Shown: positions 10,216-35,973 of the stretch, one piece after another
How the letters are laid out: every line of letters starts with the position of its first letter
Position numbering within the stretch: the stretch's first letter is position 1
Assembly (NCBI GenBank): GCA_026552835.1
Contig: JAPMTY010000115.1
Location: forward strand, 1 to 40,245
Direction of reading: 5' to 3'
DNA from: Candidatus Methanoperedens sp.
GTDB taxonomy: Archaea > Halobacteriota > Methanosarcinia > Methanosarcinales > Methanoperedenaceae
DNA length: 40,245 nt
Notes under the pieces: generated by a model
Told to the model about the DNA's origin: nothing
Seen by the model: only the letters and a program-made list of their open reading frames with translations
Database searches by the model: none
Translations under genes and position numbers: made by a program

Positions 10216-10341
10216 TGTGGGTTATCACAAAGTTTGCGACTATGGTCATAATGTTTGCGACTATAATCACAAAGTTTGCGACTGGGATTTCCTAATGTGA
10301 GTTTGCACAAAGTTTGTGTGAGAAGCCATAATTTTTGCGAA
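10216..10341 (+). repeat. nrdD-side transposon end with closely packed TnsB-type sites
   Basis: After the terminal TGTGGG, a roughly 19-bp motif TTATCACAAAGTTTGCGAC recurs at 10222-10240, 10244-10261 (GGTCATAATGTTTGCGAC) and 10264-10282 (TAATCACAAAGTTTGCGAC), a pitch of about 21 bp. Weaker versions follow near 10299-10318 and 10325-10341 (GCCATAATTTTTGCGAA). Dense sites of this size are what TnsB binds at the Tn7 right end. The same motif occurs inverted at the other end of the element. Confidence 0.85.
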
Positions 10342-10398
10342 TGAAAAGGAAAAAGTCTGCAAATGAAAAATTCCATGCCTTCTCAAGAATTCTCGGCA

Positions 10399-10435
10399 AT
10401 ATGAAGCTTGTATGGTTTTTCTAAGGCACTGTGAC
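10399..10435 (+). repeat. decayed terminal CRISPR repeat
   Basis: This 37-bp stretch aligns without gaps to the canonical repeat at 26 of 37 positions and keeps the last seven bases CTGTGAC. A 35-bp spacer-like sequence (10436-10470) separates it from the first regular repeat. It lies at the leader-distal end of the array, 163 bp inside the transposon end. Atypical repeats flanking a terminal spacer are known from CRISPR-associated transposons, but ordinary arrays also decay at this end. Confidence 0.7.
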
Positions 10436-10470
10436 TATGTAGCGAAGACAGGTTCGAACTCAAATACTGG

Positions 10471-13372
10471 ATTTCAATCCCTTATGGGTTTTCCAATGCG
10501 CTGTGACGTTATTGCCGAGAGACCTATGTTTTCATATCCAGAATCGTTTCAATCCCTTATGGGTTTTCCAATGCGCTGTGACCAACTATTGCAATACAAC
10601 ATGGGATGCAGGACTTCAGTTTCAATCCCTTATGGGTTTTCCAATGCGCTGTGACCAACTATTGCAATACAACATGGGATGCAGGACTTCAGTTTCAATC
10701 CCTTATGGGTTTTCCAATGCGCTGTGACTTAACTCATTCAGTGGTTTTTAATGTGGGACTTCGCCACGTTTCAATCCCTTATGGGTTTTCCAATGCGCTG
10801 TGACGTCAAATCGCTGAAATGTTGCCCCGGCAAACGGAGGGTTTCAATCCCTTATGGGTTTTCCAATGCGCTGTGACTTTCGGTAGCGTGGATATTACGC
10901 CATACCGAGAAGCAGTTTCAATCCCTTATGGGTTTTCCAATGCGCTGTGACCAGCGGAAATGGAGCGGGCGATTACGCGGCATTTTAGTTTCAATCCCTT
11001 ATGGGTTTTCCAATGCGCTGTGACCGTATTGATAGAAATGAATACCCATGTTTGGAACCGTGTTTCAATCCCTTATGGGTTTTCCAATGCGCTGTGACTT
11101 GACACCCCACACCGGATTGAACGGCGCAATACCCCAGTTTCAATCCCTTATGGGTTTTCCAATGCGCTGTGACTCTCGGTTTCTGTTATACTTTCGCATG
11201 CCTGGCATTTGAGGTTTCAATCCCTTATGGGTTTTCCAATGCGCTGTGACCAAGCGGACTTACTGCTACACTTCTTTCAGTTTTGTTTCAATCCCTTATG
11301 GGTTTTCCAATGCGCTGTGACTTATTCTGGATCATAGCAACTTCTCCAAGACATATATGTTTCAATCCCTTATGGGTTTTCCAATGCGCTGTGACACTAT
11401 ATTTGATGAATGACAAAATACGCATATTTTAGTTTCAATCCCTTATGGGTTTTCCAATGCGCTGTGACAAGACCTTCGGCGACATGTTGAACTATGCAGA
11501 AGAGTTTCAATCCCTTATGGGTTTTCCAATGCGCTGTGACCAATTTATAAAGCCGTTGCATTGCTCTTTAAGTTTATGTTTCAATCCCTTATGGGTTTTC
11601 CAATGCGCTGTGACACAGGAATGAGAGGGGGAGGTAAAACACACCTCATCAAGGTTTCAATCCCTTATGGGTTTTCCAATGCGCTGTGACGCTACCAGTA
11701 CCGCTTGCGAATCCAGTACAATTTATTTGTTTCAATCCCTTATGGGTTTTCCAATGCGCTGTGACTCGACAACGAGTTTGTCGCATCAAAACGTGACAAC
11801 AGGGTTTCAATCCCTTATGGGTTTTCCAATGCGCTGTGACCGGATAGTCCTGAGCTGATTCCAACAGAGAGCCTACAAGTTTCAATCCCTTATGGGTTTT
11901 CCAATGCGCTGTGACTCAATGAAATTAGTTAGTATCTCGTTACTAACATGCTGTTTCAATCCCTTATGGGTTTTCCAATGCGCTGTGACCTACAACAGGA
12001 CGCATTGATATGTCTTCATTCATTGCGTTTCAATCCCTTATGGGTTTTCCAATGCGCTGTGACACGCTTGATGTTTCGCATTCAGGGACATCAGATGGGT
12101 TTCAATCCCTTATGGGTTTTCCAATGCGCTGTGACATATGATAGAAGAACAGCTGGCTCTAAACAATACAAAGTTTCAATCCCTTATGGGTTTTCCAATG
12201 CGCTGTGACCTAGTACCACTGACACCAAGAGGATGTGTAGAACTCAAGTTTCAATCCCTTATGGGTTTTCCAATGCGCTGTGACTTTTTATTCTTTTTCT
12301 TTTTCTGTTTTTAAGGGCAAGTTTCAATCCCTTATGGGTTTTCCAATGCGCTGTGACCGACGACCTTTGATTAAGCCTGCCACAAGGCCAAAGTTTCAAT
12401 CCCTTATGGGTTTTCCAATGCGCTGTGACCCGACGGTGTTTCTCTTGCAGGTACAACCACAAAGTTTCAATCCCTTATGGGTTTTCCAATGCGCTGTGAC
12501 CATAAATAAAACTTCCTAATTTTGATTTAAAACCCTGTTTCAATCCCTTATGGGTTTTCCAATGCGCTGTGACGTAAAAGCTGGAACTGCGAACATTGCT
12601 CAAAGGTAGTTTCAATCCCTTATGGGTTTTCCAATGCGCTGTGACCAGATTAACCCATTTATACAGAACATTATGCCTTCGTTTCAATCCCTTATGGGTT
12701 TTCCAATGCGCTGTGACCCAGCAAGAGACACACCGTCGGTTGTATTCGCATCGTTTCAATCCCTTATGGGTTTTCCAATGCGCTGTGACTTTCTGGCTGT
12801 ATTGAGGTCATTGGCTGGAATAACGTTTCAATCCCTTATGGGTTTTCCAATGCGCTGTGACATTTTCAGTCATACCATCCACAACTTCATCTATGAGTTT
12901 CAATCCCTTATGGGTTTTCCAATGCGCTGTGACATGTTACTCCTCATTCTGGATATGGTTCTTTATCGTTGTTTCAATCCCTTATGGGTTTTCCAATGCG
13001 CTGTGACGTTTGTATTCCAGCCAATGACCTAAATACAGCCAGAGTTTCAATCCCTTATGGGTTTTCCAATGCGCTGTGACGGTTGAATATATCATGACAA
13101 CCCCTGCAACGGTAGGTTTCAATCCCTTATGGGTTTTCCAATGCGCTGTGACCAAGGGAAAGCGCCGCCAAAGCGGCGCTTTTTACCCGTTTCAATCCCT
13201 TATGGGTTTTCCAATGCGCTGTGACACCAAGGGAAAGCGCCGCCAAAGCGGCGCTTTTTACCCGTTTCAATCCCTTATGGGTTTTCCAATGCGCTGTGAC
13301 AAGGGAAAGCGCCGCCAAAGCGGCGCTTTTTACCCGTTTCAATCCCTTATGGGTTTTCCAATGCGCTGTGAC
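10471..13372 (-). CRISPR. type I-D CRISPR array, 40 repeats of 37 bp
   Basis: Forty copies of a 37-bp repeat, written on the plus strand as GTTTCAATCCCTTATGGG... and ending ...GCGCTGTGAC, separate 39 spacers of 34-40 bp. One more spacer leads to the decayed repeat upstream. The repeats are nearly identical; the first, at 10471, starts with A instead of G. Read on the minus strand the repeat ends ATTGAAAC, the usual 5' handle of type I/III crRNAs, so transcription should run from 13372 towards 10471. The leader then lies beside cas2. Spacers at 10583-10618 and 10656-10691 are identical. The three leader-proximal spacers (13153-13188, 13226-13263, 13301-13335) are variants of one hairpin-forming sequence. 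No spacer matches the insertion site by eye. Confidence 0.97.
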
Positions 13373-13503
13373 GGCATACTAAAAATGCTCCTTTTGCCTT
13401 ATAATCCTTTGTAAATCCTCAGAATTATGCTGTCATTTCACGAACCTTATGCATACCCGCTGTTTATATACGTTCAGGAAAAATGACCGGAACCAATATG
13501 GGC
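13373..13503 (-). promoter_or_regulatory. CRISPR leader with TATA boxes
   Basis: A 131-bp A/T-rich stretch lies between the newest repeat and the end of cas2. Read on the minus strand it has archaeal TATA-like elements CGTATATAAA (13463-13472) and TTATATAAG near 13500. The first would place a start about 65 bp before the array. The position next to the repeats' ATTGAAAC end and to cas1-cas2 fits a leader for transcription and spacer integration. Confidence 0.7.
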
Positions 13504-13770
13504 TTATATAACATTTGATTTTTTCACTTGCGTCATTTCACCGAGTTCTGTTGTATTATTAATGCACCTTTCACATAAAGAATATATCCTTATTTTATCG
13601 GTGCTTTCGATGATACTCTTCAACCTGTCTTCCAGTTCAATTCTCTCAACGCTGTCGATCTCAAGCTCAAAAACACTGTATTGCTTCCAGGCGCCAAACT
13701 CCTCAAGCGTCCTGAAGACATGCCTCCTGATACGGTCATCGCTTATGTCGTAAGTGATAACAAGCCTCAT
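13504..13770 (-). CDS. cas2: CRISPR adaptation protein Cas2
   Basis: An 88-residue ferredoxin-like protein that opens MRLVITYDISDDRIRRHVF, the Cas2 beta-1 motif with the metal-binding aspartate of YDIS, followed by EFGAWKQYSVFELEID. Cas2 bridges two Cas1 dimers in the spacer-integration complex. It overlaps the end of cas1 by 4 bp (13767-13770) and is the last gene of the operon, next to the leader. Full length for the family. Confidence 0.96.
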   Translation of the reverse strand: MRLVITYDISDDRIRRHVFRTLEEFGAWKQYSVFELEIDSVERIELEDRLKSIIESTDKIRIYSLCERCINNTTELGEMTQVKKSNVI

Positions 13771-14765
13771 TTGGGATACTCCAGCGGGTAGTATTCCTTT
13801 AGTTCACCTGTTATGGCTTTTCGCAAAAGGATAGCCTGCATTCTTATGGCTTTCCTGCGATTGACTGTGTACTCGAACCTGGGATGGCTGAACTCCTCTT
13901 TCATGTATTCATCGTACTTTTCAAGGTATTTCTTAAAGGCATCTTTTATCAATCGATTATCCACGCCAAAATCTTCATGAGTGATCTCACCACGGTTCAC
14001 AAGACGCAGAACGAATGCATCCGCAAAGATCGCCCTGAACTCTTCCATAAGATCAAGTGCAAGCGCCGGTCTTCCATGCCTGTCAGCATGCATTATCCCC
14101 AGATACGGATCAAGATTGTACTGGCGCAGGCCGCTTTGGACTTCGTTCTTGATCATTGTATAGGTGAGTGACAGGAGCGCGTTGATATGGTCTTGCGGCG
14201 GGCGCCTTGTTCGCTTTTCGAAAGTCCAATCACCTACGAGGCATTCGTTAAGAAGGGTGAAATAGATATCGGATGCCTGCCCCTCAAAACCCATCAGTTC
14301 ATCTGTGGTCTTAATGTTCTTATCTTCGAGGATGCGCACCTCTATATCCAACAACTTATCCGTTGATTTAACTCCTTTTCTTGATAGAAGTATCCTTGAG
14401 TTGTGGATTTTTGCCTGGACGATCCTTTTTGCAATCTTTAGCTTTTCTGCATCACTCTGTGCATACTGGCGGCGCCTTATTTCAGCGATGGTGTTGATCT
14501 CTGGCAAGAAACTGCCGCGGTAGGCGCCGTTCTCTGTGAAATAGTTGAGGACGATGCCGTGTTCATTCGCGCTTGCCACGAACGGTGTTGTGAAGTTAAC
14601 TCCTCCAAAAACGTTGATGGTATCCACTTTACCTATGGGAAATGAGGCGAGTTCTCCCTCGCCTTTTTTCGCAACAGTAATTCTTCCGCCATCTATGCCT
14701 ATGACGCTTCCCTGCGTGGTCACGAATACCACGCTGTCGTCGAATATGCCTTCGCTTTCTTTCAT
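13767..14765 (-). CDS. cas1: CRISPR integrase Cas1
   Basis: The protein from the ATG at 14765 (332 residues) starts MKESEGIFDDSVVFVTTQGS, the beginning of the N-terminal beta domain. The longer open frame to 14870 would overlap cas4. The alpha-helical catalytic domain carries the metal ligands Glu161 (MGFEGQAS), His226 (YLGIMHADRHGRPALALDL) and Glu241 (MEEFRAIFADAF). Cas1 inserts new spacers at the leader end. It begins one base after the cas4 stop codon and overlaps cas2. All catalytic residues are present, so spacer acquisition should be possible. Confidence 0.96.
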   Translation of the reverse strand: MKESEGIFDDSVVFVTTQGSVIGIDGGRITVAKKGEGELASFPIGKVDTINVFGGVNFTTPFVASANEHGIVLNYFTENGAYRGSFLPEINTIAEIRRRQYAQSDAEKLKIAKRIVQAKIHNSRILLSRKGVKSTDKLLDIEVRILEDKNIKTTDELMGFEGQASDIYFTLLNECLVGDWTFEKRTRRPPQDHINALLSLTYTMIKNEVQSGLRQYNLDPYLGIMHADRHGRPALALDLMEEFRAIFADAFVLRLVNRGEITHEDFGVDNRLIKDAFKKYLEKYDEYMKEEFSHPRFEYTVNRRKAIRMQAILLRKAITGELKEYYPLEYPK

Positions 14766-14766
14766 T

Positions 14767-15336
14767 TTATACACGCTCCAGTAATTTTGATTCAACAGGC
14801 AGGCAGTACTGCGAGGTACTGCAATTCTTGCATTTTTTAGGATTGTCAGTGAAACCGGGGATGGAATCAAGTGACATGCTTCTTATTTTTTCTACGGTCT
14901 CGATGACCTTTTCGCGGTGCCATTCGGTTATTGTGATGGCGTAGCGCTCGTTAGTGCCGAAAAGATAGATGTATCCAAGGCGTACGGGTTCTTCGAGATA
15001 GTCTTCGAGGAGCATGCAGTAGGCGGCGAGCTGGATCTCGTCGTTGTCGAAATAGGAATCGCCATGTTTTCGCTCGATTGGAGTCATGTCAGCCTTCCCC
15101 TCTATAATGTCGATCTTACCGTGCATGTGCATTTTTTCAGACTTCAGGTATATTTCACGATACCAGCCGCCCCTCCTGCTCTGGTTCTTATGTTTTGAAC
15201 GTCCGTCAGCGAGATAGTAGTTTAATCCTTGCGTCTTGTAGAACATCAGGTAATAGAGACGGCGCGCGCAGTAGAGGTACTGGTTGAGATCGGAGACGTT
15301 GACTAGGAGGGGGTCGTTATCCATAAGCGAGTTCAC
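14767..15336 (-). CDS. cas4: Cas4 RecB-like nuclease with iron-sulfur cluster
   Basis: A 189-residue protein with the RecB-nuclease core: Asp76 in HGKIDIIEG, Glu88 and Lys90 in TPIERKHG, and the QLAAYC motif near 102-107. Cys23 and the terminal Cys169, Cys172, Cys178 should bind a 4Fe-4S cluster. Cas4 trims prespacers and selects those with a correct PAM. The start overlaps the cas3 stop by 4 bp, which shows coupled translation. An internal ATG (Met5) is an alternative start. Confidence 0.94.
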   Translation of the reverse strand: MNSLMDNDPLLVNVSDLNQYLYCARRLYYLMFYKTQGLNYYLADGRSKHKNQSRRGGWYREIYLKSEKMHMHGKIDIIEGKADMTPIERKHGDSYFDNDEIQLAAYCMLLEDYLEEPVRLGYIYLFGTNERYAITITEWHREKVIETVEKIRSMSLDSIPGFTDNPKKCKNCSTSQYCLPVESKLLERV

Positions 15337-17396
15337 GCTGTTGAAATTCGGTCATAAATCACACAGTCAACATAAATCGCATCTAAACCAATTGCCAGAC
15401 ATCCATCCTTGAAATCAATGAGCATAGTGTAATCATCAATATCATAGAACTTCTTTGATACTTTGCTTGAATTCGAAAGATACCTGCACATTAAACCAGT
15501 ACGCTTGATTTCAATTTGGATATATTTTAAATCTAAATCCTCTGTCGAACTTTCCTTTGTAACTGTTACTGGGAGCAATCCATATGCTTTTTCTGGTTTT
15601 CGATCGGCTTCAGGGAGATCCATTTGTTTCATTTCTCTTCCAACAAATTTTATATATCTTGGTTTTTCAATCAGATTCTTGATAATTGCATATCCTGCGA
15701 CTCTATCTGATATTTCATCAATTTCCTTTGATTTATCTGGAAGCCTTTTTTTGAATAATTTCTTTGATAAAAGTTCCATGTCTGCCCATCGAAGCAGAAA
15801 AAATGCATTATAAGTGCCAAATGTTTGAGTTCTTAAGTCATAATATGCTATATCCACCCCATTACCTCTAAAATTGCTCAATTCATCCATGAATTCCAAT
15901 AATTCCTGCTTTGTTGACTTGCCTGGCAATCCAATCAATTCCAAAATTTCTTTAGAACTTATATTCCTATTTTTGAAATAATGCTCTCTAATCAAATCCA
16001 AGCCTTGACTGAAATAAATATCTTTTTTATCAGATGGTAATCCGCCTTTTAGCGGTGGAAATGAATGACCACTTCGCATTTTTTTGGCTTCTTTAACACC
16101 GATGCCATACGCATTTTTATAAATATATTCGTAAGCTTCAAGATATCCATACAGCCACCTGAAATTTTCGGAAAGTTTCGGATCATGCATAGTTTTTTTC
16201 AAGTTTTCTTCCAAATGTTGTCGGGAAATCTTTTCGAATTTACTAAAATGTTCAACCACTTCCACAGGCGCAAAGCAGATTGATTTATATTTCTCACCGG
16301 GAATAGGATTCCTTAACCTGCCAAAACGCTGTAAGAATTCACTGACCGAATGACCTGAGAAAATCAGACGTGAAATTGCATATTCTCCTTTGAAATCGAT
16401 ACCAACCTCTACAGCTTTATTTCCAACCAGAACATCAAATGAATCTTCCATTGAATCTTTTCTAAAACCACTCCGCTCACAGATTCTCCAATCAGTTTCT
16501 CTTCGAAGTACCTCGCTTACCACTGCAACTTCATGTGCGCTATCAAAAATAATCGCCATACGTTGATTTCCTTTAAACTCTCTGAGCCAGTTCAGGTCTT
16601 TCAATAGTTTTTCTCCGGCCATAAAACGCGGAGCATGGCGAAATTCAAGTTCTACTTCAGGCATGATAGGCTGTTTGTCGATAACTGGATCATCAATACA
16701 AATTCGACTGGTATCAAAAAGATTTCCACTTATAACATTCATTATTTTTGATTGTATCTGTTCATTTGGTGTTGCACTGAGAAATATGAATTTTCGCATT
16801 TCAGTGCCATCTGCAATCAGAATATCATGTAAAATAAAAAGTATAATATCCGACTGGCGCAGGTCATAAAGATGGAATTCATCAAAAACGACGGTATTTA
16901 TATGGTTCTTGAAAATTGACTTTAGATATTCATCATAAAAATATCCTTTGAGTGCATAAATAAAAATATCAGGATTTGTTACAATAATGCCACCGCCATG
17001 GTTTGCCATTTTACGAACCATCCCGACTAAGATTTCACCTTTGGTTATCCTGTATGAGAAATCATCCTTTTTCAATCCAAGCTTCTCTGCTGTTACAAAT
17101 TCAATCTGTTTATTTGATTTCAATGATTCTTTTAAGCGCACGATGGATCTGTACTGATCCTCTGCGAGAGCATTGGTTGGATAAAGCGCAATCACAACGC
17201 CAAGATTATTTTCTTTAAGCGCTGGCACTGCCCACGCATCAGTTTTTCCGGAACCTGTCGGAGATGTAATAAAAAGAAAAAATTCATTGACTTTCCTGAT
17301 AGTATCTCTTGCTATTATCTGGTGTGCATACGGTAAATGATTGCCAATCAACGGTTCTTGATCATACCGAGGAAGTGCAAGTTCTTCAATAATCAA
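15333..17396 (-). CDS. cas3: Cas3' helicase of type I-D (no HD domain)
   Basis: A 687-residue superfamily 2 helicase. Motif I is SPTGSGKT (45-52), motif II is DEFH (172-175) in VVFDEFHLYD, motif III is LSATP and motif VI is the QRFGRLRN segment. There is no HD nuclease at either end, as expected for type I-D, where the HD domain sits on Cas10d. It unwinds target DNA after Cascade binding. All helicase motifs look intact. This is notable because transposon-encoded CRISPR systems that guide insertion normally lack Cas3. It overlaps both csc1 and cas4 by 4 bp. Confidence 0.92.
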   Translation of the reverse strand: MIIEELALPRYDQEPLIGNHLPYAHQIIARDTIRKVNEFFLFITSPTGSGKTDAWAVPALKENNLGVVIALYPTNALAEDQYRSIVRLKESLKSNKQIEFVTAEKLGLKKDDFSYRITKGEILVGMVRKMANHGGGIIVTNPDIFIYALKGYFYDEYLKSIFKNHINTVVFDEFHLYDLRQSDIILFILHDILIADGTEMRKFIFLSATPNEQIQSKIMNVISGNLFDTSRICIDDPVIDKQPIMPEVELEFRHAPRFMAGEKLLKDLNWLREFKGNQRMAIIFDSAHEVAVVSEVLRRETDWRICERSGFRKDSMEDSFDVLVGNKAVEVGIDFKGEYAISRLIFSGHSVSEFLQRFGRLRNPIPGEKYKSICFAPVEVVEHFSKFEKISRQHLEENLKKTMHDPKLSENFRWLYGYLEAYEYIYKNAYGIGVKEAKKMRSGHSFPPLKGGLPSDKKDIYFSQGLDLIREHYFKNRNISSKEILELIGLPGKSTKQELLEFMDELSNFRGNGVDIAYYDLRTQTFGTYNAFFLLRWADMELLSKKLFKKRLPDKSKEIDEISDRVAGYAIIKNLIEKPRYIKFVGREMKQMDLPEADRKPEKAYGLLPVTVTKESSTEDLDLKYIQIEIKRTGLMCRYLSNSSKVSKKFYDIDDYTMLIDFKDGCLAIGLDAIYVDCVIYDRISTA

Positions 17397-18157
17397 ATAC
17401 GTATCCTCCGAAGATAACGAACATTCAGCGGCAGCACATCTTTACCGTCAATTTTTACATAATCCCCTGAAAAACGTGCATTTTGAATTATATCAAATGG
17501 CTGCATTCTTTTGAATGTGATATCACCCAGAGGAATCGAATCAAGGTCATCTATTAGCACCGGATGAGTTGTATTATAGAATCCATCTGATGCGACTGCA
17601 CTTACCTCTTTCCATTCTACTCGTGCTTTGCAGCGTTTTTTTCCAATCCGAATATAAGGCGGCATATCTGGTTCTGAACCATCAAAAGTTAACACATAAA
17701 ACAGAAATCGCGCACCAGGTTGAATCTGTTTTCTTGCGCCATAACGTCCTGTTGGTGTATTGGCATTTTCATCAGCCGGAGCTAATTTATTCGACTGTAT
17801 ATAGTCATCACTTCGTGAATTATATATTTCAGTTGTAAATTCAGGGTTATTTATGGCTTTAGCTGGTGTTATGTAAATCCGATCCACCAGGTCTGATGTA
17901 TCCTCCACATAAGTTGGATTTTGTTTCGCTCTACCTTTTTTTACTGGGAAATTAATATAGTTTCCTTTAGCATATCCGAGAGCATAAAATAGTGCAGTAT
18001 TCAAAATAATTGGTTCAGTTGTAAAATTGTCTCCAGGTTCAAGGGAGGCGAAGAATAATTCACTCATTAATTCTATAATCCCTCTGAAAGCACGCACTTT
18101 GATATTCTCAATCTTCGGAAGCACAGGACTTAATGAGATTTGAATCTGTTTCGCCAT
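17393..18157 (-). CDS. csc1: Csc1, Cas5 subunit of type I-D Cascade
   Basis: A 254-residue protein that begins MAKQIQISLSPVLPKIENIKV and has the Csc1-like region INTALFYALGYAKGNYINFPV, plus a C-terminal VLPLNVRYLRRIRI. It should cap the 5' handle of the crRNA in the Cascade complex. The frame is open to a GTG at 18166, but the ATG at 18157 has AGGTG at a normal distance. Its place between csc2 and cas3 is the usual I-D order. Assignment rests on length, position and general features. Confidence 0.85.
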   Translation of the reverse strand: MAKQIQISLSPVLPKIENIKVRAFRGIIELMSELFFASLEPGDNFTTEPIILNTALFYALGYAKGNYINFPVKKGRAKQNPTYVEDTSDLVDRIYITPAKAINNPEFTTEIYNSRSDDYIQSNKLAPADENANTPTGRYGARKQIQPGARFLFYVLTFDGSEPDMPPYIRIGKKRCKARVEWKEVSAVASDGFYNTTHPVLIDDLDSIPLGDITFKRMQPFDIIQNARFSGDYVKIDGKDVLPLNVRYLRRIRI

Positions 18158-18171
18158 TATTTTCACATCAC

Positions 18172-19422
18172 CTAAGGCACATTCTGCTGAACTGGAGTTG
18201 ACGGGGTTTCAGTTTTGGCTTTTTTAACTCTCGCTTTGGATGTTTTGGCTTTTTCCTCTTGAGTATTCTGCAAATTTAATAAATTTCCAAGCTTATTAAT
18301 TTGCTCAACTAAGAGGGCTTTCATAACATCATCATTCAATTCGGTCAAAATACTTGATACCGACGTTTCATTAAACTTAACTCCGGTGCCTATTGATTTG
18401 ACAGGGGGGATTAAATTATTAGTTCCTTCTGATGCGGATGTTGTGACAATTTTTGTTTTCTCAATATTTTCTCCTGCATTGGACGTAGAAACAATTTCGT
18501 TTGCTACATAATTAATTCGTTGATTTTTTGAAATTTCTTCATATGATTCCGTTGCAAGTTTTTTGACATCTTCGACTTGTAAAGTGTCACTATACATTAC
18601 TTTTTTCAATTTTTCTTCCGGAGTCGTCTTGATCGTATCCGAATCCAGTATCCTTCCTGCAAGTTTCAATGCGATATTGCGTGTAACTTCCAAGCTTGAA
18701 GGCCCTTCTCGATGTCCGGCATAAACCCCAAGAATATGATTCTGGACTTTGCCAAATCGTGTGGTTGTTGCTCCATATCGTGAATTTCTATCTGTTATAT
18801 TCAAAAAGAACATCAATTCTTCAGCAGTTACATCTTTTAATGTAATAACGCACGGAAACAAAGTTCCCTCTTTGAAGAAATCTGGTTCGCGGATTCCTGA
18901 CGTGGGTTCTTTTGAATAATCATCGCCTGGGGCATTCTGGAAATATTCTTGAACGATTGCACTAAGTGCTCGAATAGTGTAAGCTTCATCATACATAACC
19001 CGCGATGTTATACTTATGCTTTCATCTGAGGCTGCACTTCCAAAAAGTATACATTCTGGACATTTCTGACACATATCATTTACTTTCATTGTGCACCCAT
19101 CCCACCCATCAGCTCCTATCGCTTTTTTCATTTCTTCCGAAATAAGCATGCGCTGGAGAGCTTTGGCTTTTCTTCTGTCACTTGCAACCTGTTTACGACC
19201 AAACATTTTACCGACTGTTTCTTCAATGCCACCTATGCGTATTATCGCAGAGTTTGCTTCCACCCCATCTGTTGTAAAACGGGCAGCGCTCTTGAGTTCT
19301 CTCAATATAAGGATGTTTACGTAATTTTCCTTTGGTTTATTTTCTGGCTTAGGAAGAGTGAAATCTTTGAGCAATTCTTTAAACGTTTCAATATTATTTG
19401 TTTTATTTTCATTGTTTGTCAT
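18172..19422 (-). CDS. csc2: Csc2, Cas7 backbone subunit of type I-D Cascade
   Basis: A 416-residue RAMP protein. The early part has VNILILRELKSAARFTTDG, the RNA-binding strand of Csc2. A zinc-binding insertion has Cys110, Cys118, Cys121 and Cys124 (MCQKCPEC). A later conserved region is NITDRNSRYGATTTRFGKVQNH. The C-terminal 80 residues are low-complexity and lysine-rich, which is longer than many Csc2 proteins. Several copies would coat the crRNA spacer. It overlaps cas10d by 4 bp. Confidence 0.92.
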   Translation of the reverse strand: MTNNENKTNNIETFKELLKDFTLPKPENKPKENYVNILILRELKSAARFTTDGVEANSAIIRIGGIEETVGKMFGRKQVASDRRKAKALQRMLISEEMKKAIGADGWDGCTMKVNDMCQKCPECILFGSAASDESISITSRVMYDEAYTIRALSAIVQEYFQNAPGDDYSKEPTSGIREPDFFKEGTLFPCVITLKDVTAEELMFFLNITDRNSRYGATTTRFGKVQNHILGVYAGHREGPSSLEVTRNIALKLAGRILDSDTIKTTPEEKLKKVMYSDTLQVEDVKKLATESYEEISKNQRINYVANEIVSTSNAGENIEKTKIVTTSASEGTNNLIPPVKSIGTGVKFNETSVSSILTELNDDVMKALLVEQINKLGNLLNLQNTQEEKAKTSKARVKKAKTETPSTPVQQNVP

Positions 19423-26062: not shown

Positions 26063-28297
26063 TTGCCTACGATCTTACCAATACCGGGCGCACGATATAT
26101 GAAGGATGGTACTACTTACAAGATTATCCAGAATCTGGACAAGAAAAACATCGAGGTTGAGGATGAAAATACCAAACGGAGATCTATTGTATCCGAACCC
26201 GAACTGGTGAACTGTTTATTTGAGGGGAAACTCAGGTTCTTCAAAACTGAAGCACAAGATAGTGATAATACTCCTTCATGTCCTGATCTATCGACTGCTA
26301 AAGATGAATACAGCGAAATTGCAATTTTACATTATGAACTCATAAAACCATTGCTTAAGCTGTCCAATCACGATCGTACTAGAGAGAAAGTCAAAGAAAG
26401 AATAAACCAGATAACCTCGGACCCGCTGTTTAACAAAATAACAATGGATGGAACTAAAAGACCGCATATAGCAACTGTATACCGATGGATAAGAGCATAT
26501 GAACGAAACGGTAATGATATCAGAGCACTCGTACCCTCTTACCAGGACAGCGGAGCAAGAGGCGAACCTAGAACCAGAAATGAAGTAGAGGAGCTAATCA
26601 AAGAAGGGATCGAGAATTCTTATTACCGCCCATCAAGGCCGACCAGACGAGAAACATGCGATGATATTCAAGATTTAATCGTGAACGCAAATAAAACCAG
26701 GCCAGCCGATGATCAGCTTCCTCTAATAAGTTATCCCACCATAACTAGGAGAATAAATGCTCTTAATCTTTATGATGCCACCAAACACCGTTACGATACA
26801 ATAGAGGCAGAAAAGCAGTTTGGAACTAAGGGAGCAGGGCTAAAGCCCACCCGTCCACTGGAGATAGCCGAAATAGACCACACCCCACTTGATTTATTCG
26901 TCGTGGATGATGATAATAGAAACCTAAAACTGGGAAGGCCACATATTACATACATGATAGATAAGTACAGCCGTTATCCTCTTGGCTTTTATGTGGGCTT
27001 CAATAAGCCCAGTTACCTCAGTGTAATGTACTGTCTATATCACGCCATATCTCCAAAGACGAATGTTAGTGAACGTTATCCTGAGATCAAAAATACATGG
27101 TCTGCTTACGGCGTGCCTGAAACGCTTATCGTCGATAACGGAAAAGAGTTTCACAGTATCTCTTTAGAGAGTGCCTGTCTGCAGTTAAACATAAACTTGC
27201 AATACAGCCCTGGTATGATGCCCTGGTACAAGGGAACAATGGAACGAGCTTTTGGAACCTTAAATCAGGATTTACTAAATACCTTGCCTGGAAAGAGCTT
27301 TTCTTCTTATGACAAGCGCGGAAGCTATGACTCCGTAGAAGAAGCTAAAATCCCATTTAAAGAATTCATTGAAATACTCCATACCTGGATCATAGACAAA
27401 TACTGTAAAAAGTTCCACCGCGGAATTAAAAATGTCCCGCAAACACTATGGGACACCGGAACGAACGCATTTCCAGTTAATCTTCCTTATAGAAAAGAGG
27501 AACTAATAGTATTGCTAGGTGAACTGGAAGCCAGGACTCTCACGAACAAGGGAATCGAATTCAATGGACTGTTCTATAATTCCAGAGAACTCACCCGGAT
27601 GAAGAACTCTTACCCAGCAAAAGAGGCACCACAAATACAATTTAAGTATAACCCAGACGACATCTCTCGCATCTGGGTATTTAACCGAAGAGAAAACAGA
27701 TATATCGAAGTTGAAGCAAACGAACAGAAGTATACAAAAGACCTAAGCCTCTGGAAACACGAAATAAATATTAGTAATGTTAAGAAAATCAAAGCTAATG
27801 TTAACATGCAAGACTTGAGAGATGCCGATGCCCGAATAAATAAGATTGTAGAGGAGGCAAAAATAGAACGAAGTAAAAAAGGGAAAGCATCACCACTTAT
27901 AGCGAAATTCGACCAAATCTCAAGCAGAGAATTGCCTGAAAAAGAACAGAAAAACAATACAGATGATGCTTCTGTATCCGTCAATGTTATTCCCCAACCT
28001 GCAACACCTAATTCTGGCAATGAGAACTATAAGATTTCAGATATTGGGACTGAATATAATAATGTTGGGGGAACCGATTCGGAAGAAAACATATCTGATC
28101 TCGAAAAGACCGGACAAGTCTCGTCCAAAGATATAACGATTGTTGAAGATCAGGACGAGAAACCTGTGAAAGAGAGAACTAAAGTAAAACAAACACAAAA
28201 AGTCCCACATAAAGAAACCAGTCCGGTTAGACAAAGAAAAACCAAAGAAAAAGAATTTGACATGACTGGCTGGGAAGTTTCTTCCAAGAATGACTGA
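26063..28297 (+). CDS. tnsB: TnsB DDE transposase
   Basis: A 744-residue transposase with N-terminal HTH DNA-binding regions (about 80-250), an rve integrase core and a beta-barrel/C-terminal tail. The catalytic triad is Asp272 (AEIDHTPLDLF), Asp358 (TLIVDNGKEF) and Glu394 (WYKGTMERAFGTL), with the classical D(35)E spacing. TnsB binds the repeated end sites and joins 3' ends to target DNA. The last 130 residues are low-complexity and end EFDMTGWEVSS, a likely TnsC-binding tail. The start is a TTG with GGAG about 10 bases upstream; no ATG fits better. Confidence 0.95.
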   Translation: MPTILPIPGARYMKDGTTYKIIQNLDKKNIEVEDENTKRRSIVSEPELVNCLFEGKLRFFKTEAQDSDNTPSCPDLSTAKDEYSEIAILHYELIKPLLKLSNHDRTREKVKERINQITSDPLFNKITMDGTKRPHIATVYRWIRAYERNGNDIRALVPSYQDSGARGEPRTRNEVEELIKEGIENSYYRPSRPTRRETCDDIQDLIVNANKTRPADDQLPLISYPTITRRINALNLYDATKHRYDTIEAEKQFGTKGAGLKPTRPLEIAEIDHTPLDLFVVDDDNRNLKLGRPHITYMIDKYSRYPLGFYVGFNKPSYLSVMYCLYHAISPKTNVSERYPEIKNTWSAYGVPETLIVDNGKEFHSISLESACLQLNINLQYSPGMMPWYKGTMERAFGTLNQDLLNTLPGKSFSSYDKRGSYDSVEEAKIPFKEFIEILHTWIIDKYCKKFHRGIKNVPQTLWDTGTNAFPVNLPYRKEELIVLLGELEARTLTNKGIEFNGLFYNSRELTRMKNSYPAKEAPQIQFKYNPDDISRIWVFNRRENRYIEVEANEQKYTKDLSLWKHEINISNVKKIKANVNMQDLRDADARINKIVEEAKIERSKKGKASPLIAKFDQISSRELPEKEQKNNTDDASVSVNVIPQPATPNSGNENYKISDIGTEYNNVGGTDSEENISDLEKTGQVSSKDITIVEDQDEKPVKERTKVKQTQKVPHKETSPVRQRKTKEKEFDMTGWEVSSKND

Positions 28298-29447: not shown

Positions 29448-30641
29448 ATGAATCCATTGCCTATACGAACGAAAATTCGACCTTTTGAGAGCTTATTGAG
29501 TTTAGTCTTCCGATTGACCGAGGCTAACGTTTACGAATACCCGGGGAGGATATTAAATAGACTGGCAGAGTCGCCTGATAAGTTCTCTACTCAGAATAAT
29601 TTAAACAACCCAAATACTATCAGGATCCTTTCCTCTTTGAACAAGTGTTCAGAAGAAGATATTTTCTCTACAACTTCACACAGATTCACGAAATTCTTCT
29701 CACATGCAAATGACTCCATAATGGATTCGGACCTGCTGAAGAATTATGTAAGGCACTCAACGACCCAATACTGTCCATTATGTGTCAACGAATCAGGTTA
29801 TCACAGGATTTACTGGGATATCATACCTGTTACGATATGCCTGAAGCATAAAGTCATACTCCAGAGCACCTGCCCCTCGTGCAACCACCCTGTCAGAGTA
29901 TACAGCATACTGAGAAACAAATGCAACTGCGGAAAAGATTTACTCACAGTCAACCCTGTAGATATCATTCCTTATCCAGAAGCAATTCGCAACCAAGTCT
30001 TCATCCAGAACCTGCTTGAAATAAACGAATCCGGATATTCAGATAATGCCACCCAGAATATTAATAGTCCTGCAATGGAATTGTCCCCTCCGGATTTTTT
30101 CAGGGCACTGAAACTATTTTCAATCGTCCTGAACAAACTCCCTGAGTCTTCCAGATTCCTGAGGTTAGGCGATATGACCTCCACTCCACTCAAATGGATA
30201 AGAGAAAAGAAAAGAGTTTCCAATTTCACCAACTTGATCCTGATAAACTCAGCAGCTTCTATTTTACTGGAATGGCCACAAAAATTCTACGAATTCCTCA
30301 ATGAATACAGTACAATAGATCGAGCCAAATACAGAATAAGCGGTATTGTAAAAGATTTCGGTGGATTAAAAGAACTGTTATTTTATAAGCTTGACAATGA
30401 AAGTTTTGCCTTTATACATTCTACGTATAGCAATTACCTGAACGAACAATGGAATGGTGGACACCTGAGTGCTAATATAAAGTATCTCGATATACAGGAT
30501 AAAGATATTCAGAAAAAACACATTACTACTGGCGAATCACGTCGTATACTGGGCATCGATTATAATTTTATACTACAGCTAATAAATCAAAAGGTAATAA
30601 AGGCTAGCATTATCGAAATAAAGACCAAAAATAGATCCTGA
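29448..30641 (+). CDS. tniQ: TniQ/TnsD-family target selector, N-terminal part
   Basis: A 397-residue protein. The N-terminal motif IRPFESLLSLVFRLTEANVYEYPGRI and the zinc-finger core with Cys109, Cys112 (QYCPLC), Cys131 (CLKH), Cys142, Cys145 and Cys159/Cys161 identify TniQ. TniQ links a target-recognition module (a DNA-binding tail or Cascade) to TnsC. The last 38 residues begin a helix-turn-helix module (ESRRILGIDYNFILQLINQ) that breaks off before its wing. The next gene continues the same module type after a frame change at about 30635. It may therefore be the front half of a split TnsD, or a short TniQ in its own right. Confidence 0.9.
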   Translation: MNPLPIRTKIRPFESLLSLVFRLTEANVYEYPGRILNRLAESPDKFSTQNNLNNPNTIRILSSLNKCSEEDIFSTTSHRFTKFFSHANDSIMDSDLLKNYVRHSTTQYCPLCVNESGYHRIYWDIIPVTICLKHKVILQSTCPSCNHPVRVYSILRNKCNCGKDLLTVNPVDIIPYPEAIRNQVFIQNLLEINESGYSDNATQNINSPAMELSPPDFFRALKLFSIVLNKLPESSRFLRLGDMTSTPLKWIREKKRVSNFTNLILINSAASILLEWPQKFYEFLNEYSTIDRAKYRISGIVKDFGGLKELLFYKLDNESFAFIHSTYSNYLNEQWNGGHLSANIKYLDIQDKDIQKKHITTGESRRILGIDYNFILQLINQKVIKASIIEIKTKNRS

Positions 30642-31938: not shown

Positions 31939-31969
31939 TACCAGAAAAATAACGGTGCTCAGTGATTTT

Positions 31970-32505: not shown

Positions 32506-33050
32506 ATGCCACCAAAAGCTGTTAGAACTGTGAGGGATTTAATTTACTGGCAGTATTCAAAGCTGATAGCCGAATCGGCAGGTTATGGAAAGACCAAGAA
32601 CTATGGCTTTATCATGGATAGATTTAAACAGCTTAAAAGTGGGGATATTCAATGGTCAGGATCAATAAGGGAATATGTAAAAGAACGAGAAAAACCGAAT
32701 GAATGCATATACTGCGGGAGTAAAGAGGCTTTAAGTACCGATCATCTGGTACCTAAATGCAGGGGAGGGCCTGATTCGGGGGACAATGCAATTACTGCAT
32801 GCAGGAGATGCAACTCATCCAAAGGAGATAGGGTGTTTACGAGTGGTACGGACTTGAAAGAAGGAATGAACTTCCCAGGATAGTTGAAGGAAAGTATTTG
32901 AAGTTGCTATATCCCCTTCATGAAGAAGAAGGAACATTGGACGTGGATGTCAAGAATCTGGATAAACTATGTGATATGTGTGATTTAGGGAAGTTGTGTG
33001 AAGAGAAGTCGCTGACTGTCTATTGCCTTGAGAGTATTTTGAAAAAATAG
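32506..33050 (+). pseudogene. frameshifted HNH endonuclease
   Basis: The ATG at 32506 opens a protein with an HNH nuclease domain: CIYCGSKEALSTDHLVPKC and DNAITACRRCNSSKGDR (CxxC, DH, N, CxxC). The frame then shifts near 32830, and the ATG frame ends at 32881. In the next frame the sense continues as YEWYGLERRNELPRIVEGKY and LYPLHEEEGTLDVDVKNLDK, with a cysteine cluster CDMCDLGKLC, to a stop at 33048-33050. Adding one G at the GGG run restores the whole protein of about 181 residues. The nuclease domain itself is complete in the truncated form. Confidence 0.75.
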
Positions 33051-33566: not shown

Positions 33567-35048
33567 ATGGGTGTTCAAAATATCCCTCAATCTTTATTGG
33601 CAGATCATTGGGTACAGTACACAAAACCTTATTGTAGTTTAAGAGATACATTCACAAGTCCTATATCTCCAGATGCCCTTTTTCTGTACCATAACCCACT
33701 AATTATAAACAATAAACTTCGCTCCGAGAGAAATTATGATAATATCTTTAACGAAACTCACGAACTTATGCATTATAGGGACCTAACGAGTGTCGTTCCT
33801 TTTATTACTCATTTTATCATAAACGAAGCTTTAGATTGCCTCTACCTGTTCAAAACAATTGCCATCACTAGCGATATTAATATTCAAGCTCCACTGCTTG
33901 ATCTTCCTCCTCGCCCACAGTGTCCAAATGATTTTGAACAACATTTAAAAGGTCTTTTTGAAGGTTCTGCTCTCCATTGGTGGTACACAATATCGCAACC
34001 GAAACTTCATACTTTAGCGCTTTCAGAGGGCTTATTAGAAAAAGCAATAGAGCCTATTCCCGACCTAGAAGAGAGGAACCAACGCACAATAAGATCGCTT
34101 GAAACCGAGGAAAAAGTCAAGACTATCGCAGGCGGCTATGCAACTCTTCAGACGATAAATGAATCGTATCAAAGGTTAAAGAATATAGGCAAGAGTAGAT
34201 ACCTACCAGCCTTCCTTATCTGGAAAATTGCCTTAAACACTTGCACATATGTAGATCAGTGGCACGATACAACTCCCTATGAAAGTGCATTTAAGGTCAT
34301 TAGCAGCCAAACCTTTGTACAAACTCCATTTGAGGACATGCGTGTAGCTATGAGCCAGCTTTTAGAGGATCACGAGTATCAAGCAAAGCTGCTCAGCAAA
34401 AATAATTGTAACGCCATCATTCAGCAAATAGCGGAATGGGTAGATTTCTGTAGAGGTCTTGAAGATGCGTGTAATGACGAAATCATATGCGATTATGCTA
34501 AGACCTACCTGAAGGATGTCTTCAAAGCTTGTGGTTTTGAGCTTTATGGTATACAAAAGTTTTACGAAAATGTACTTTTGGGAGAAAAGTTAGACGCTGA
34601 AGCTATGGAACTAATTAACCAAGTTACTTATCCTCCTATACTCAATTTTGCTACTAACAAGTTTAACTATATTGAGGAAAAATACTTCTTACCTATGCCT
34701 GAATCATGGCTCATATTCTTCTTCCTATCTGATCTAAAAAAACGCCTGAAAGACCCTATCTATAAGAATAGTTACCAAAAGCATTACGAAGAGAGAAACA
34801 AACCAGATGGTTGGTTGCACGACCCTCTCTTCCACGTCCTTACCACAGAGCTAGGTTATGAAATTGAGCCAGCCTATGAAAAATTAAGAGAGTTTTACCG
34901 TAACGCATTCAAGGTTGAGCGCGCAGATCAAGCCGATTTCAAATTTAAGAAAATTATGAAACCAAAAGACTGGTCAGATAAACCTGATAACGACCCATTC
35001 TGGAGGGTAGGAAAAGAAATATTAAGTGAGCTTATAGTGGAGTTCTAA
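33567..35048 (+). CDS. unknown cargo protein with HExxH motif
   Basis: A 493-residue soluble protein that I do not recognise. Residues 65-69 are HELMH (FNETHELMHYRDLTSVVPF), an exact HExxH zinc-protease motif; a possible third ligand lies in LFEGSALHWWYTI near 129-141. The remainder is mainly helical, with no membrane segment or signal peptide. The next gene starts one base after its stop codon, so the two form one operon inside the transposon, between decayed cargo and the right end. An intact pair among broken genes suggests that selection keeps it; a defence or toxin-like role is possible but only inferred. The ATG at 33567 follows a GGAGCTGAG stretch. Confidence 0.7.
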   Translation: MGVQNIPQSLLADHWVQYTKPYCSLRDTFTSPISPDALFLYHNPLIINNKLRSERNYDNIFNETHELMHYRDLTSVVPFITHFIINEALDCLYLFKTIAITSDINIQAPLLDLPPRPQCPNDFEQHLKGLFEGSALHWWYTISQPKLHTLALSEGLLEKAIEPIPDLEERNQRTIRSLETEEKVKTIAGGYATLQTINESYQRLKNIGKSRYLPAFLIWKIALNTCTYVDQWHDTTPYESAFKVISSQTFVQTPFEDMRVAMSQLLEDHEYQAKLLSKNNCNAIIQQIAEWVDFCRGLEDACNDEIICDYAKTYLKDVFKACGFELYGIQKFYENVLLGEKLDAEAMELINQVTYPPILNFATNKFNYIEEKYFLPMPESWLIFFFLSDLKKRLKDPIYKNSYQKHYEERNKPDGWLHDPLFHVLTTELGYEIEPAYEKLREFYRNAFKVERADQADFKFKKIMKPKDWSDKPDNDPFWRVGKEILSELIVEF

Positions 35049-35049
35049 A

Positions 35050-35553
35050 ATGAAAATGCAGGGACGTATTGAAGCAATGTCATGCGAGCTTATAGGACTT
35101 AAAGACTCCGGAATCCAAAAAGTTATTCAAGCATACGAGTCTGTATTCCAAAATAAAGAAGGTGTGCTTTATGACGTATTATCACGCATAAACGCTATAG
35201 AGGAAGCTAAACAGATTTTAAACATGATATTCAATGGAACACAAGTTAAGATAACTTGCAGCCTCAAAGATCAAATAGACAAAGACGCCATAAGCGATCT
35301 GATTGTAAACATTGGCAACGCCTACTGCCCAGAGACGCGTGAACATGGTAAAATGGAATGTACGTCTATCCAGATACTGAGTAAGAAAGATGAACAGCAC
35401 CTCTTAATTACATATAGCTGTATGCATCCTATATGCCGTGCAAAAAGGATAAAAAGGACAATAGAAAAAAATTTGCCCAAACTGTGGGATGATGCTAAGG
35501 AAATTGCTAAATCTTTGAGATTTTTTAACATCGATATATCGCAAAAAGAATAA
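35050..35553 (+). CDS. unknown partner of the HExxH cargo protein
   Basis: A 167-residue soluble protein with five cysteines, including CPETREHGKMEC and the cluster CMHPICRAKRIKR, and a helical N-terminal half (GIQKVIQAYESVFQNKEGVL). No known domain is visible to me. It begins one base after the HExxH gene, which points to joint function and perhaps a complex. It is the last gene before the transposon end. Confidence 0.65.
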   Translation: MKMQGRIEAMSCELIGLKDSGIQKVIQAYESVFQNKEGVLYDVLSRINAIEEAKQILNMIFNGTQVKITCSLKDQIDKDAISDLIVNIGNAYCPETREHGKMECTSIQILSKKDEQHLLITYSCMHPICRAKRIKRTIEKNLPKLWDDAKEIAKSLRFFNIDISQKE

Positions 35554-35840
35554 AATTTAGGGAAGATTTCTATTTCCTGAAAAAATATCATTTCTCTTTC
35601 CACTTTCTTACTTTTCAGCTTGATTCTGCTTGCATTGTTTTGTATCAATTGCTTTTAGAGCAAAAGTAGACGGACTTAAATTTGAAGGTTTGAGAATTAA
35701 GCATGGCCATATATGTATGCTGGACAACGAACCCCAAACCCGAACTCGTTGTTTTAAGTTCATCTAACTATGAACAGTTTTATCACTATTTCACAAGCCC
35801 AATTTTCACTCACTACTTACAACTGTTTACAATGCTGATA
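35554..35840. other. gap before the distal transposon end, no gene seen
   Basis: A 287-bp A/T-rich stretch between the last cargo gene and the first strong TnsB-type site. No reading frame is convincing. A weak version of the end motif (ACTGTTTACAATGCTGAT) lies at about 35822-35839. Confidence 0.45.
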
Positions 35841-35973
35841 GTTGCAAACTTTGTGATAATTCCGGCGGATAGTTGCAAACTATGTGAACATGAATTGCAA
35901 ACTTTGTGATTATTTCGAAGAAATGTTTAAATATGAAATCCAATCCCAGTTGCAAACTATATGATAACCCACA
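35841..35973 (-). repeat. distal transposon end with spaced TnsB-type sites
   Basis: Four copies of the end motif stand in the orientation opposite to those at the nrdD-side end. They are at 35841-35859 (GTTGCAAACTTTGTGATAA), 35872-35890, 35894-35912 and 35949-35967 (GTTGCAAACTATATGATAA), followed by the terminal CCCACA. The innermost-to-outermost gaps are uneven and wider than at the other end, like the left end of Tn7. The first base after the element is the start of the TGGGC duplication. Confidence 0.88.

What the first reader, a model, noticed from the sequence alone, without database searches (positions are those of the whole stretch)
10216..35973. Archaeal Tn7-like transposon with precise ends carrying a full type I-D CRISPR-Cas locus
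Perfect 12-bp inverted termini (TGTGGGTTATCA), an exact 5-bp duplication (TGGGC), multiple inverted end sites, and tnsA-tnsB-tnsC-tniQ bound one unit that encloses a complete type I-D system. Known CRISPR-associated transposons carry reduced CRISPR systems. A complete, apparently active system inside a Tn7-like element in a likely archaeon may be an ancestral stage of type I-D transposons or a new defence-island vehicle.
Basis: partly seen in the sequence, partly recalled or inferred. Interest (0 to 1): 0.95.

Follow-up and report, generated by a model that had tools for sequence, protein, structure and literature searches.

The report
Archaeal Tn7-like transposon carrying complete CRISPR
A 25.8-kilobase Tn7-like transposon, very likely in the chromosome of a methane-oxidising archaeon (Candidatus Methanoperedens), holds a complete type I-D CRISPR immune system between its ends, probably as protective cargo rather than as its own targeting device; this matters because an earlier survey identified no Tn7-like transposases in archaea.

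Summary
Window 10216-35973 is one Tn7-like element with perfect 12-bp inverted ends, a TGGGC target duplication and seven strong end sites, none of them internal. It encloses tnsA-tnsB-tnsC-tniQ and a complete type I-D CRISPR-Cas locus. The host is very likely Ca. Methanoperedens: the flanking nrdD is 98% identical to that of a named MAG. The CRISPR locus is an unmodified archaeal I-D operon with the gene order of a stand-alone haloarchaeal plasmid locus. Its Cas10d HD residues are intact, and it is much closer to haloarchaeal I-D than to a cyanobacterial I-D locus beside Tn7-like genes. TnsA and TnsB are separate genes and TnsB forms its own clade with nine relatives. None of 40 spacers matches the insertion site. 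The target selector is of a TnsD-like family (TniQ plus helix-turn-helix array), single-chain in most close relatives found but split across two reading frames here. I read the CRISPR as defence cargo and the insertion beside nrdD as protein-guided. CyCAST is a published complete I-D system in a Tn7-like element, so the pairing is not the first. The likely archaeal lineage and independent capture are new. No empty site could be tested.

The parts
7778..10207 (+). nrdD (anaerobic ribonucleoside-triphosphate reductase), the gene whose 3' end adjoins the insertion; likely attachment gene
   Evidence: 97-99% identical to the three nearest proteins, one of them named Ca. Methanoperedens (98%); its stop lies 8 bp before the element
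10211..10215 (.). target-site duplication TGGGC, left copy
   Evidence: sequence; scan
10216..10227 (+). left terminal inverted repeat TGTGGGTTATCA (nrdD-proximal end)
10225..10283 (+). three strong transposase-binding-like sites (10225, 10246, 10267), 21 bp apart
   Evidence: binding itself not tested
10399..13372 (-). CRISPR array, 41 repeats and 40 spacers; the degenerate repeat at 10399 marks the far end; likely transcribed on the - strand from the cas2 side
   Evidence: transcription direction inferred from repeat form (recalled) and cas2 side
13373..13503 (-). likely CRISPR leader between array and cas2
   Evidence: position only (inference)
13504..13770 (-). cas2
   Evidence: PF09827 E 4.5e-21
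13767..14870 (-). cas1 (Cas1d; the true start is probably inside this open frame)
   Evidence: PF01867 E 1.1e-82; Cas1d E 1.3e-129; 66% to Halorussus Cas1
14767..15336 (-). cas4
   Evidence: PF01930 E 1e-21
15333..17396 (-). cas3' helicase (Cas3d)
   Evidence: TIGR03158 E 1.2e-85
17393..18166 (-). csc1 (cas5d)
   Evidence: TIGR03159 E 4.6e-63
18172..19422 (-). csc2 (cas7d)
   Evidence: PF18320 E 6.4e-50
19419..22733 (-). cas10d (csc3) with HD residues H85, H123, D124 kept
   Evidence: TIGR03174 E 7.1e-215; alignment to two haloarchaeal Cas10d; H123 and D124 replaced in L065
22691..23554 (-). cas6
   Evidence: PF10040 E 3.9e-13
23683..24321 (+). csa3, divergent CRISPR regulator with Csa3 N-terminal domain and HTH
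   Evidence: PF22662 E 3.3e-18; same divergent place in Halorussus L087
24623..25288 (-). HTH protein divergent from tnsA; possible regulator of the tns genes (inference)
   Evidence: weak HTH matches
25420..26061 (+). tnsA endonuclease, separate gene
   Evidence: PF08722 E 5.8e-16
26063..28297 (+). tnsB DDE transposase (D260, D346 and E382 of P0001 are invariant in the 10 TnsBs aligned; their catalytic role is recalled)
   Evidence: PF09299
28346..29419 (+). tnsC AAA+ ATPase (TniB family)
   Evidence: PF05621 E 9.7e-28
29448..30641 (+). tniQ, first part of a TnsD-like target selector
   Evidence: PF06527 E 4.5e-14; lines up with the first 399 columns of P0242
30665..31774 (+). tandem-HTH part of the same target selector, in another reading frame
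   Evidence: PF12728 E 2.3e-32; lines up with P0242 from column 409 to the end
32506..32883 (+). HNH endonuclease, cargo
   Evidence: PF01844 E 2.2e-12
33567..35048 (+). unknown cargo protein, 493 aa
   Evidence: no match in Pfam, NCBIfam, PADLOC or PHROGs
35050..35553 (+). unknown cargo protein, 167 aa
   Evidence: no match in the same four libraries
35840..35964 (-). four strong transposase-binding-like sites (35840, 35871, 35893, 35948)
35962..35973 (-). right terminal inverted repeat
35974..35978 (.). target-site duplication TGGGC, right copy

Best explanation
Window 10216-35973 is a Tn7-like transposon, very likely in a Candidatus Methanoperedens chromosome, that encloses a complete type I-D CRISPR-Cas locus which likely works as defence cargo, while a TnsD-like protein, not a CRISPR RNA, likely directed its insertion beside nrdD. 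How it would work: a TniQ-plus-HTH-array protein would bind the 3' end of nrdD and recruit TnsC (inferred); TnsC would bring TnsA and TnsB bound to the end sites (inferred from Tn7); TnsA and TnsB would cut the element out and join it with a 5-bp stagger, leaving TGGGC on both sides (the duplication is shown, the reaction is inferred). The CRISPR locus would be expressed under Csa3, take up spacers with Cas1-Cas2-Cas4 and destroy matching DNA with Cas10d and Cas3' (inferred from complete gene content and conserved residues). The host and the element would both gain from the protection. In this copy the selector is split over two reading frames (shown), so the element may now be immobile, or the two parts may act together (untested).
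For: Ends, duplication and end sites confine one unit with no internal end seen. The selector family is TniQ fused to an HTH_17 array: of the 10 close hits (P0241-P0250, the last being the window's own piece or a copy of it), 6 carry both domains on one chain and P0249 is a 5'-truncated fusion. One intact chain, P0242, lies on a contig of the same 23,918-base length as that of TnsB relative P0002, probably the same contig. Bacterial relatives L002, L012, L015 and L025 also have single-chain TniQ-HTH proteins (the four scanned). TnsD-type selectors are described as having long C-termini of multiple HTH domains (PMC10293859 passages). The insertion lies 8 bp after the stop of a gene whose C-terminus is conserved (117 of 120 listed nrdD hits fit a loose pattern of mine), and tnsA is the tns gene nearest to that end, as in Tn7 beside glmS (recalled). 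None of 40 spacers matches the insertion neighbourhood: best 22 of 37 bases, and no 9-base seed match. The I-D operon is whole and in the order of the stand-alone Halorussus plasmid locus, including divergent csa3, and of Halorubrum without csa3. HD residues are kept; two of the three are replaced in a CAST-like Cas10d. Cas proteins are nearest the stand-alone archaeal ones among those compared. Only 1 of the 82 loci then held, L065, gave hits to the window's cas genes. Cas genes that are cargo rather than targeting parts are known in Tn7-like loci (PMC10293859 section 9).
Against: CyCAST also has a complete I-D system with intact HD residues and yet its Cascade supports RNA-guided insertion in a laboratory assay (PMC10293859), so intactness does not exclude a targeting role. 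The CRISPR locus lies between the nrdD-side end and tnsA rather than on the far side of the tns genes, where I recall most cargo lying. No spacer has an identified viral target: array against phages 0 matches; cores of six different spacer sequences searched exactly in IMG/VR, 0 matches. I could not see whether sister elements lack cas genes. The selector split weakens any claim of present mobility.
Confidence: 0.72

Rival explanations
1. An independent, archaeal CRISPR-associated transposon in the making: the complete I-D effector would direct transposition (through the short 397-aa TniQ piece) as well as defend, like CyCAST but from a different transposase lineage.
For: Complete I-D system inside the ends; CyCAST precedent; the TniQ piece, 397 aa, is near the length of its best PDB match (7u5d, 410 aa; recalled as an I-F3 CAST TniQ); TnsB's best PDB matches are CAST TnsBs of Pseudoalteromonas (recalled from the label Pse) and Tn6677, the I-F3 kind.
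Against: Only one TniQ-family gene among the 20 element and flank proteins scanned, and its family carries the HTH array, whereas CyCAST uses a small TniQ and a separate TnsD; no spacer matches the site; no repeat-like sequence outside the array above 21 of 37, where 10 shuffles reach 21-23; the operon is unmodified.
Confidence: 0.12
2. A dead element: the selector frameshift (and possibly other decay) has fixed the element in place and the CRISPR-Cas is now simply the host's chromosomal immune system.
For: tniQ and its HTH part lie in different frames while most close relatives found are one chain; the listing entry P0250 shows a 362-aa HTH piece with the window's sequence, two member sequences and a contig length of 25,730, unlike the window's 40,245, so the split may not be private to this assembly.
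Against: Perfect 12-bp ends, exact duplication and full-length TnsA, TnsB and TnsC suggest recent activity; the split may be an assembly error or two working parts.
Confidence: 0.13
3. Chance or chimera: CRISPR locus and tns genes are neighbours by coincidence or misassembly, not one mobile unit.
For: Single contig, no reads and no empty site available.
Against: Matching ends and duplication enclose both; no internal end sites seen; G+C of element 0.392 and flanks 0.423 are close.
Confidence: 0.03

Closest known systems
CyCAST (Tn7745), Cyanothece sp. PCC 7425, complete type I-D CAST
   Same: Tn7-like element enclosing a complete I-D system with adaptation genes and intact Cas10d HD residues (PMC10293859 section 9)
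   Different: Fused TnsAB, separate small TniQ plus TnsD, tRNA attachment site, cyanobacterial; here TnsA and TnsB are separate, one TniQ-HTH family selector, nrdD site, archaeal-type Cas proteins, likely archaeal host
McCAST-type I-D CASTs (read here: Elainella saxicola locus L065, my label; its ends were not determined)
   Same: I-D Cascade genes beside Tn7-like genes
   Different: L065 has a 926-aa TnsB, long enough for a TnsAB fusion although no TnsA domain was recognised, and a Cas10d with P and C where H123 and D124 stand here; its TnsB lies far away in the tree; Csc2 28% identical
Tn7-like transposons with defence cargo (Benler et al. 2021)
   Same: Tn7-like element carrying a defence system; complete CRISPR systems there are infrequent but known (PMC8649781 passages)
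   Different: That survey identified no Tn7-like transposase homologs in archaea
Stand-alone haloarchaeal plasmid type I-D loci (Halorussus pelagicus L087, Halorubrum lacusprofundi L086)
   Same: Same gene order cas6-cas10d-csc2-csc1-cas3'-cas4-cas1-cas2, with divergent csa3 in L087
   Different: No tns gene is listed in the stretches read (13 and 14 annotated features)
Integrated mobile elements of Thaumarchaeota with CRISPR-Cas
   Same: Archaeal chromosomal mobile elements with CRISPR arrays, two of four with complete cas suites (PMC6563490 passages)
   Different: The passages do not describe them as Tn7-like
Tn7 (TnsABC with TnsD, beside glmS; recalled)
   Same: TnsA, TnsB, TnsC and TniQ-domain selector, 5-bp duplication, arrayed end sites, insertion just after a conserved gene
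   Different: Different target gene, TniQ-HTH_17 selector, no tnsE recognised

Membership tests
Tn7-like transposon | DDE transposase TnsB with TnsC AAA+ ATPase and TniQ-family protein | tested here: met
Tn7-like transposon | TGT/ACA ends with arrayed binding sites and a 5-bp target duplication | tested here: met
   binding itself not tested
Tn7-like transposon | demonstrated transposition or an empty site | not testable with these tools
   no genome held; archaeal genomes not reached
CRISPR-associated transposon (CAST), type I-D | I-D Cascade genes inside the transposon ends | tested here: met
CRISPR-associated transposon (CAST), type I-D | TnsAB fusion of the I-B2/I-D subfamily | tested here: not met
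   separate tnsA and tnsB; TnsB clade apart from L065 (long branch)
CRISPR-associated transposon (CAST), type I-D | small TniQ for RNA guidance next to a separate TnsD | tested here: not met
   one TniQ-family gene, continued by its own HTH part
CRISPR-associated transposon (CAST), type I-D | spacer matching the insertion site (shown by many CASTs; I-D CASTs can home by protein instead) | tested here: not met
   0 of 40 spacers
CRISPR-associated transposon (CAST), type I-D | RNA-guided insertion | not testable with these tools
   needs an assay
Type I-D CRISPR-Cas | cas10d, csc2, csc1, cas6 and cas3' with cas1, cas2, cas4 and an array | tested here: met
Type I-D CRISPR-Cas | HD residues of Cas10d | tested here: met
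   H85, H123, D124 invariant with two haloarchaeal Cas10d
Type I-D CRISPR-Cas | spacers against mobile DNA | tested here: inconclusive
   no protospacer found; plasmid matches are 68-75% identical haloarchaeal places, likely repeats
TnsD-type target selector | TniQ domain with C-terminal tandem HTH DNA-binding region | tested here: met
   met for the family; in the window the two parts are in different frames

The most novel reading that the evidence does not exclude
Archaea have their own lineage of Tn7-like transposons, and this one has independently captured a whole, still active I-D immune system; the split that leaves a short TniQ without its DNA-binding array could be the first step towards RNA-guided transposition, an archaeal CAST caught at birth.
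Probability: 0.1. Interest if true: 0.88.

Novelty: new variant of a known kind. Interest (0 to 1): 0.62.

Why it matters
If true, Tn7-like transposition extends to archaea, where the cargo survey whose passages I read had identified none. Complete adaptive immunity would then move as a unit between Methanoperedens chromosomes. It would also give a second, independent transposase lineage paired with a complete I-D system beside CyCAST, making it testable whether carriage as plain defence cargo precedes recruitment for RNA-guided insertion. TnsABC-TniQ from an archaeon could also be useful for genome engineering in archaea.

Tried and rejected
Homing guide: 38 spacers and the two far-end spacers against the window and the insertion neighbourhood; best 22 of 37 bases locally, no 9-base seed; rejected. 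The far-end spacer at 10436 carries a tRNA-like TTCGAA word, but ARAGORN finds no tRNA in the window and the spacer matches nothing above 21 of 35; rejected. Delocalised repeats: nothing above 21 of 37 outside the array, no better than shuffles (21-23 in 10 shuffles), against 26 of 37 for the degenerate array repeat. Internal transposon end between CRISPR and tnsA: none seen. Programmed frameshift at the tniQ junction: I read the three frames and saw no suitable slip site; this is my reading, not a tool result. Ends elsewhere: one IMG/VR hit to a 19-base end pattern lies inside a phage ORF with a PolB-exonuclease-like domain; chance. The end scan on the loci gave three possible pairs (L051, L053, L080), not followed. 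Structure of the intact relative P0242: mean pLDDT 61.8 and pTM 0.34; most of the C-terminal half is predicted better, as repeated helix-wing units, the TniQ part poorly, so no fold search was run. The promoter scan, Rfam at evalue threshold and the second structure job were not used. Rfam at gathering threshold: no match. The TnsB tree used 41 rows chosen from 120 listed proteins and 84 loci; several long branches, among them L065 and L083, have unsure places.
Full report
Check of the observation. The 12-bp terminus TGTGGGTTATCA occurs exactly at 10216-10227 (+) and 35962-35973 (-) and nowhere else without mismatch; the number of near matches alone is no more than chance. TGGGC flanks the unit on both sides (10211-10215 and 35974-35978). 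An unbiased scan for TGT...ACA pairs with a 5-bp duplication returns this pair only, against 0.05 per shuffle in 20 shuffles. A 17-nt end motif is found seven times with high score, three times at the left end and four times, inverted, at the right end; the best internal place scores 13.0, below the highest of 10 shuffle maxima, 15.8. So the CRISPR locus and the tns genes lie in one bounded unit of 25,758 bp.

Gene content. Profiles identify, on the - strand, cas2, cas1, cas4, cas3', csc1, csc2, cas10d and cas6, and on the + strand csa3, tnsA, tnsB, tnsC, tniQ, a tandem-HTH protein and an HNH protein. Two proteins near the right end (493 and 167 aa) match nothing in Pfam, NCBIfam, PADLOC or PHROGs. 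The array has 41 repeats: 39 perfect, one with one mismatch, one degenerate at 10399, hence 40 spacers, 39 of them different strings.

Host. No genome is held. The adjoining nrdD is 98% identical to a protein named for a Candidatus Methanoperedens MAG (P0122), and others so named follow. Other left-flank genes include argS, queH, a MobB/MoaE protein and two glycine cleavage H homologs, so a chromosome is likely; some flank ORFs have no family, and the right-flank gene is a Ppl-like defence gene. The nearest TnsB with a name, P0005 (53%), and a selector fragment, P0249, are also labelled Candidatus Methanoperedens. Ten TnsBs including the window's form one clade (99/98 support) in a 41-row tree; they were grouped beforehand by identity, and I know the host name of only one of the other nine.

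The transposition module. TnsA and TnsB are separate genes. In the tree the clade is apart from the TnsB of an Elainella locus with I-D Cascade genes (L065) and from an I-F3 CAST TnsB of an Aeromonas plasmid (L083), although the branches of both are long and their places unsure. Among solved structures TnsB is closest to CAST TnsBs of the I-F3 kind (best E 1.1e-78). TniQ matches the TniQ domain and CAST TniQs in the PDB only weakly (best E 2e-6).

The target selector. The window's tniQ (397 aa) is followed by a 369-aa protein of tandem excisionase-type HTH domains in another frame. In a search with both parts, 18 proteins matched; of the 10 close ones (P0241-P0250), six carry TniQ and HTH_17 on one chain (572-773 aa), P0249 is a 5'-truncated fusion, P0243 and P0248 are TniQ only (332 and 408 aa), and P0250 is the window's own kind of HTH piece. 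The two window proteins line up with P0242 end to end with about ten residues missing. Bacterial relatives L002, L012, L015 and L025 also have one-chain TniQ-HTH proteins. The selector in the window is therefore a TnsD-like protein split by a frame change near 30,640; whether this is decay, an assembly error or a working two-part protein is open. P0250 is listed with two member sequences and a contig of 25,730 bases rather than the window's 40,245, which suggests that the split may recur, but I could not see that DNA. P0248 (408 aa, TniQ only) could be a similar split or a cut contig.

The CRISPR locus. A Halorussus plasmid has the same order: divergent csa3, then cas6-cas10d-csc2-csc1-cas3'-cas4-cas1-cas2; Halorubrum has it without csa3; no tns gene is annotated in either stretch. 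Csc2 is 48 and 45% identical to these and 28% to L065; Cas6 45, 45 and 24%; Cas1 66 and 65% to the two haloarchaeal ones. Cas10d keeps H85, H123 and D124, which are invariant with both haloarchaeal proteins, whereas L065 has P and C in the columns of H123 and D124. So the locus is a whole archaeal I-D operon without signs of the reduction reported for most CASTs.

RNA guidance. CASTs insert tens of bp from a protospacer (70-80 bp for CyCAST, PMC10293859; 50-60 bp for almost all predicted CAST sites in PMC8649781, passages). None of the 40 spacers matches the neighbourhood of the insertion. The element has no second TniQ among the proteins scanned. Both facts speak against RNA-guided homing to nrdD; they do not exclude RNA-guided jumps to mobile DNA, and CyCAST itself homes by protein. 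Only 1 of the 82 loci held at that time (81 TnsB relatives and one haloarchaeal plasmid piece) gave hits to the window's cas genes, and that was L065; those loci reach at most 10 kb to each side, so cas genes further away, or of other types, would be missed.

Function of the spacers. The array matches no phage record. Three haloarchaeal plasmids match at 68-75%, one of them also carrying cas10d, so these are likely repeats of related arrays. Cores (22-24 bases) of six different spacer sequences searched exactly in IMG/VR gave nothing. Defence is therefore inferred from gene content, not shown by targets.

Comparison with what is known. CyCAST is a published complete I-D system in a Tn7-like element (section 9 of PMC10293859 read; listed as Tn7745 in PMC11406308, passages), so the pairing is not unprecedented. 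That family has fused TnsAB and tRNA sites, which differ here. The same section says that several cas genes near tnsC are cargo and unlikely to act in transposition. Benler et al. [quoted passage not shown] A 2024 review lists captures of I-C, I-E, I-D, IV-A and V-K by Tn7-like and of I-A and V-F by Mu-like elements (PMC11656645, passages). Searches of the held library for Methanoperedens with Tn7, nrdD with Tn7-like, and archaeal Tn7-like or CRISPR-transposon terms showed no report of this element or of an archaeal Tn7-like transposon in the listings, of which at most 20 rows each were shown; the library lacks most subscription papers and the main I-D CAST paper.

Verdict. A real, well bounded Tn7-like element, very likely archaeal, with a complete I-D immune system as probable defence cargo; protein-guided insertion next to nrdD is the likely targeting. 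It is a new variant of a known kind. The stronger claim, an archaeal CAST, is not excluded but has little support here.

Noticed in passing
13153-13335: Three spacers nearest the leader are the same terminator-like hairpin sequence in slightly different register; spacer 10583 is repeated at 10656. No exact hit of the hairpin in IMG/VR.
   Followed up: partly
36010-38631: A PHP-AAA protein matching the Ppl anti-phage model (PADLOC E 2.6e-57) starts just beyond the right end, outside the element; the nrdD downstream region may be a defence hotspot.
   Followed up: no
11615-11653: The spacer reads TGMRGGGKTHLIK on the + strand (my translation), a Walker A-like motif, as if taken from a packaging or transfer ATPase gene; no exact IMG/VR hit.
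   Followed up: partly
P0154, P0158, P0160, P0162, P0167, P0226 (protein hits, not in the window): Some close nrdD relatives carry intein domains (PF14890, most also PF14528).
   Followed up: no
32-460 and 506-1003: Two glycine cleavage H-protein homologs side by side.
   Followed up: no
L084 (Nostoc plasmid pNPM2), 5811-9109 and 14369-19039: A related Tn7-like gene set (TnsB 34%) with CBASS-type genes (DncV-like, E2, Mov34/MPN family) about 5 kb upstream.
   Followed up: no
L080 827-8163, L053 6116-16306, L051 9329-14438: Possible element ends with 5-bp duplications found by the same end scan.
   Followed up: no
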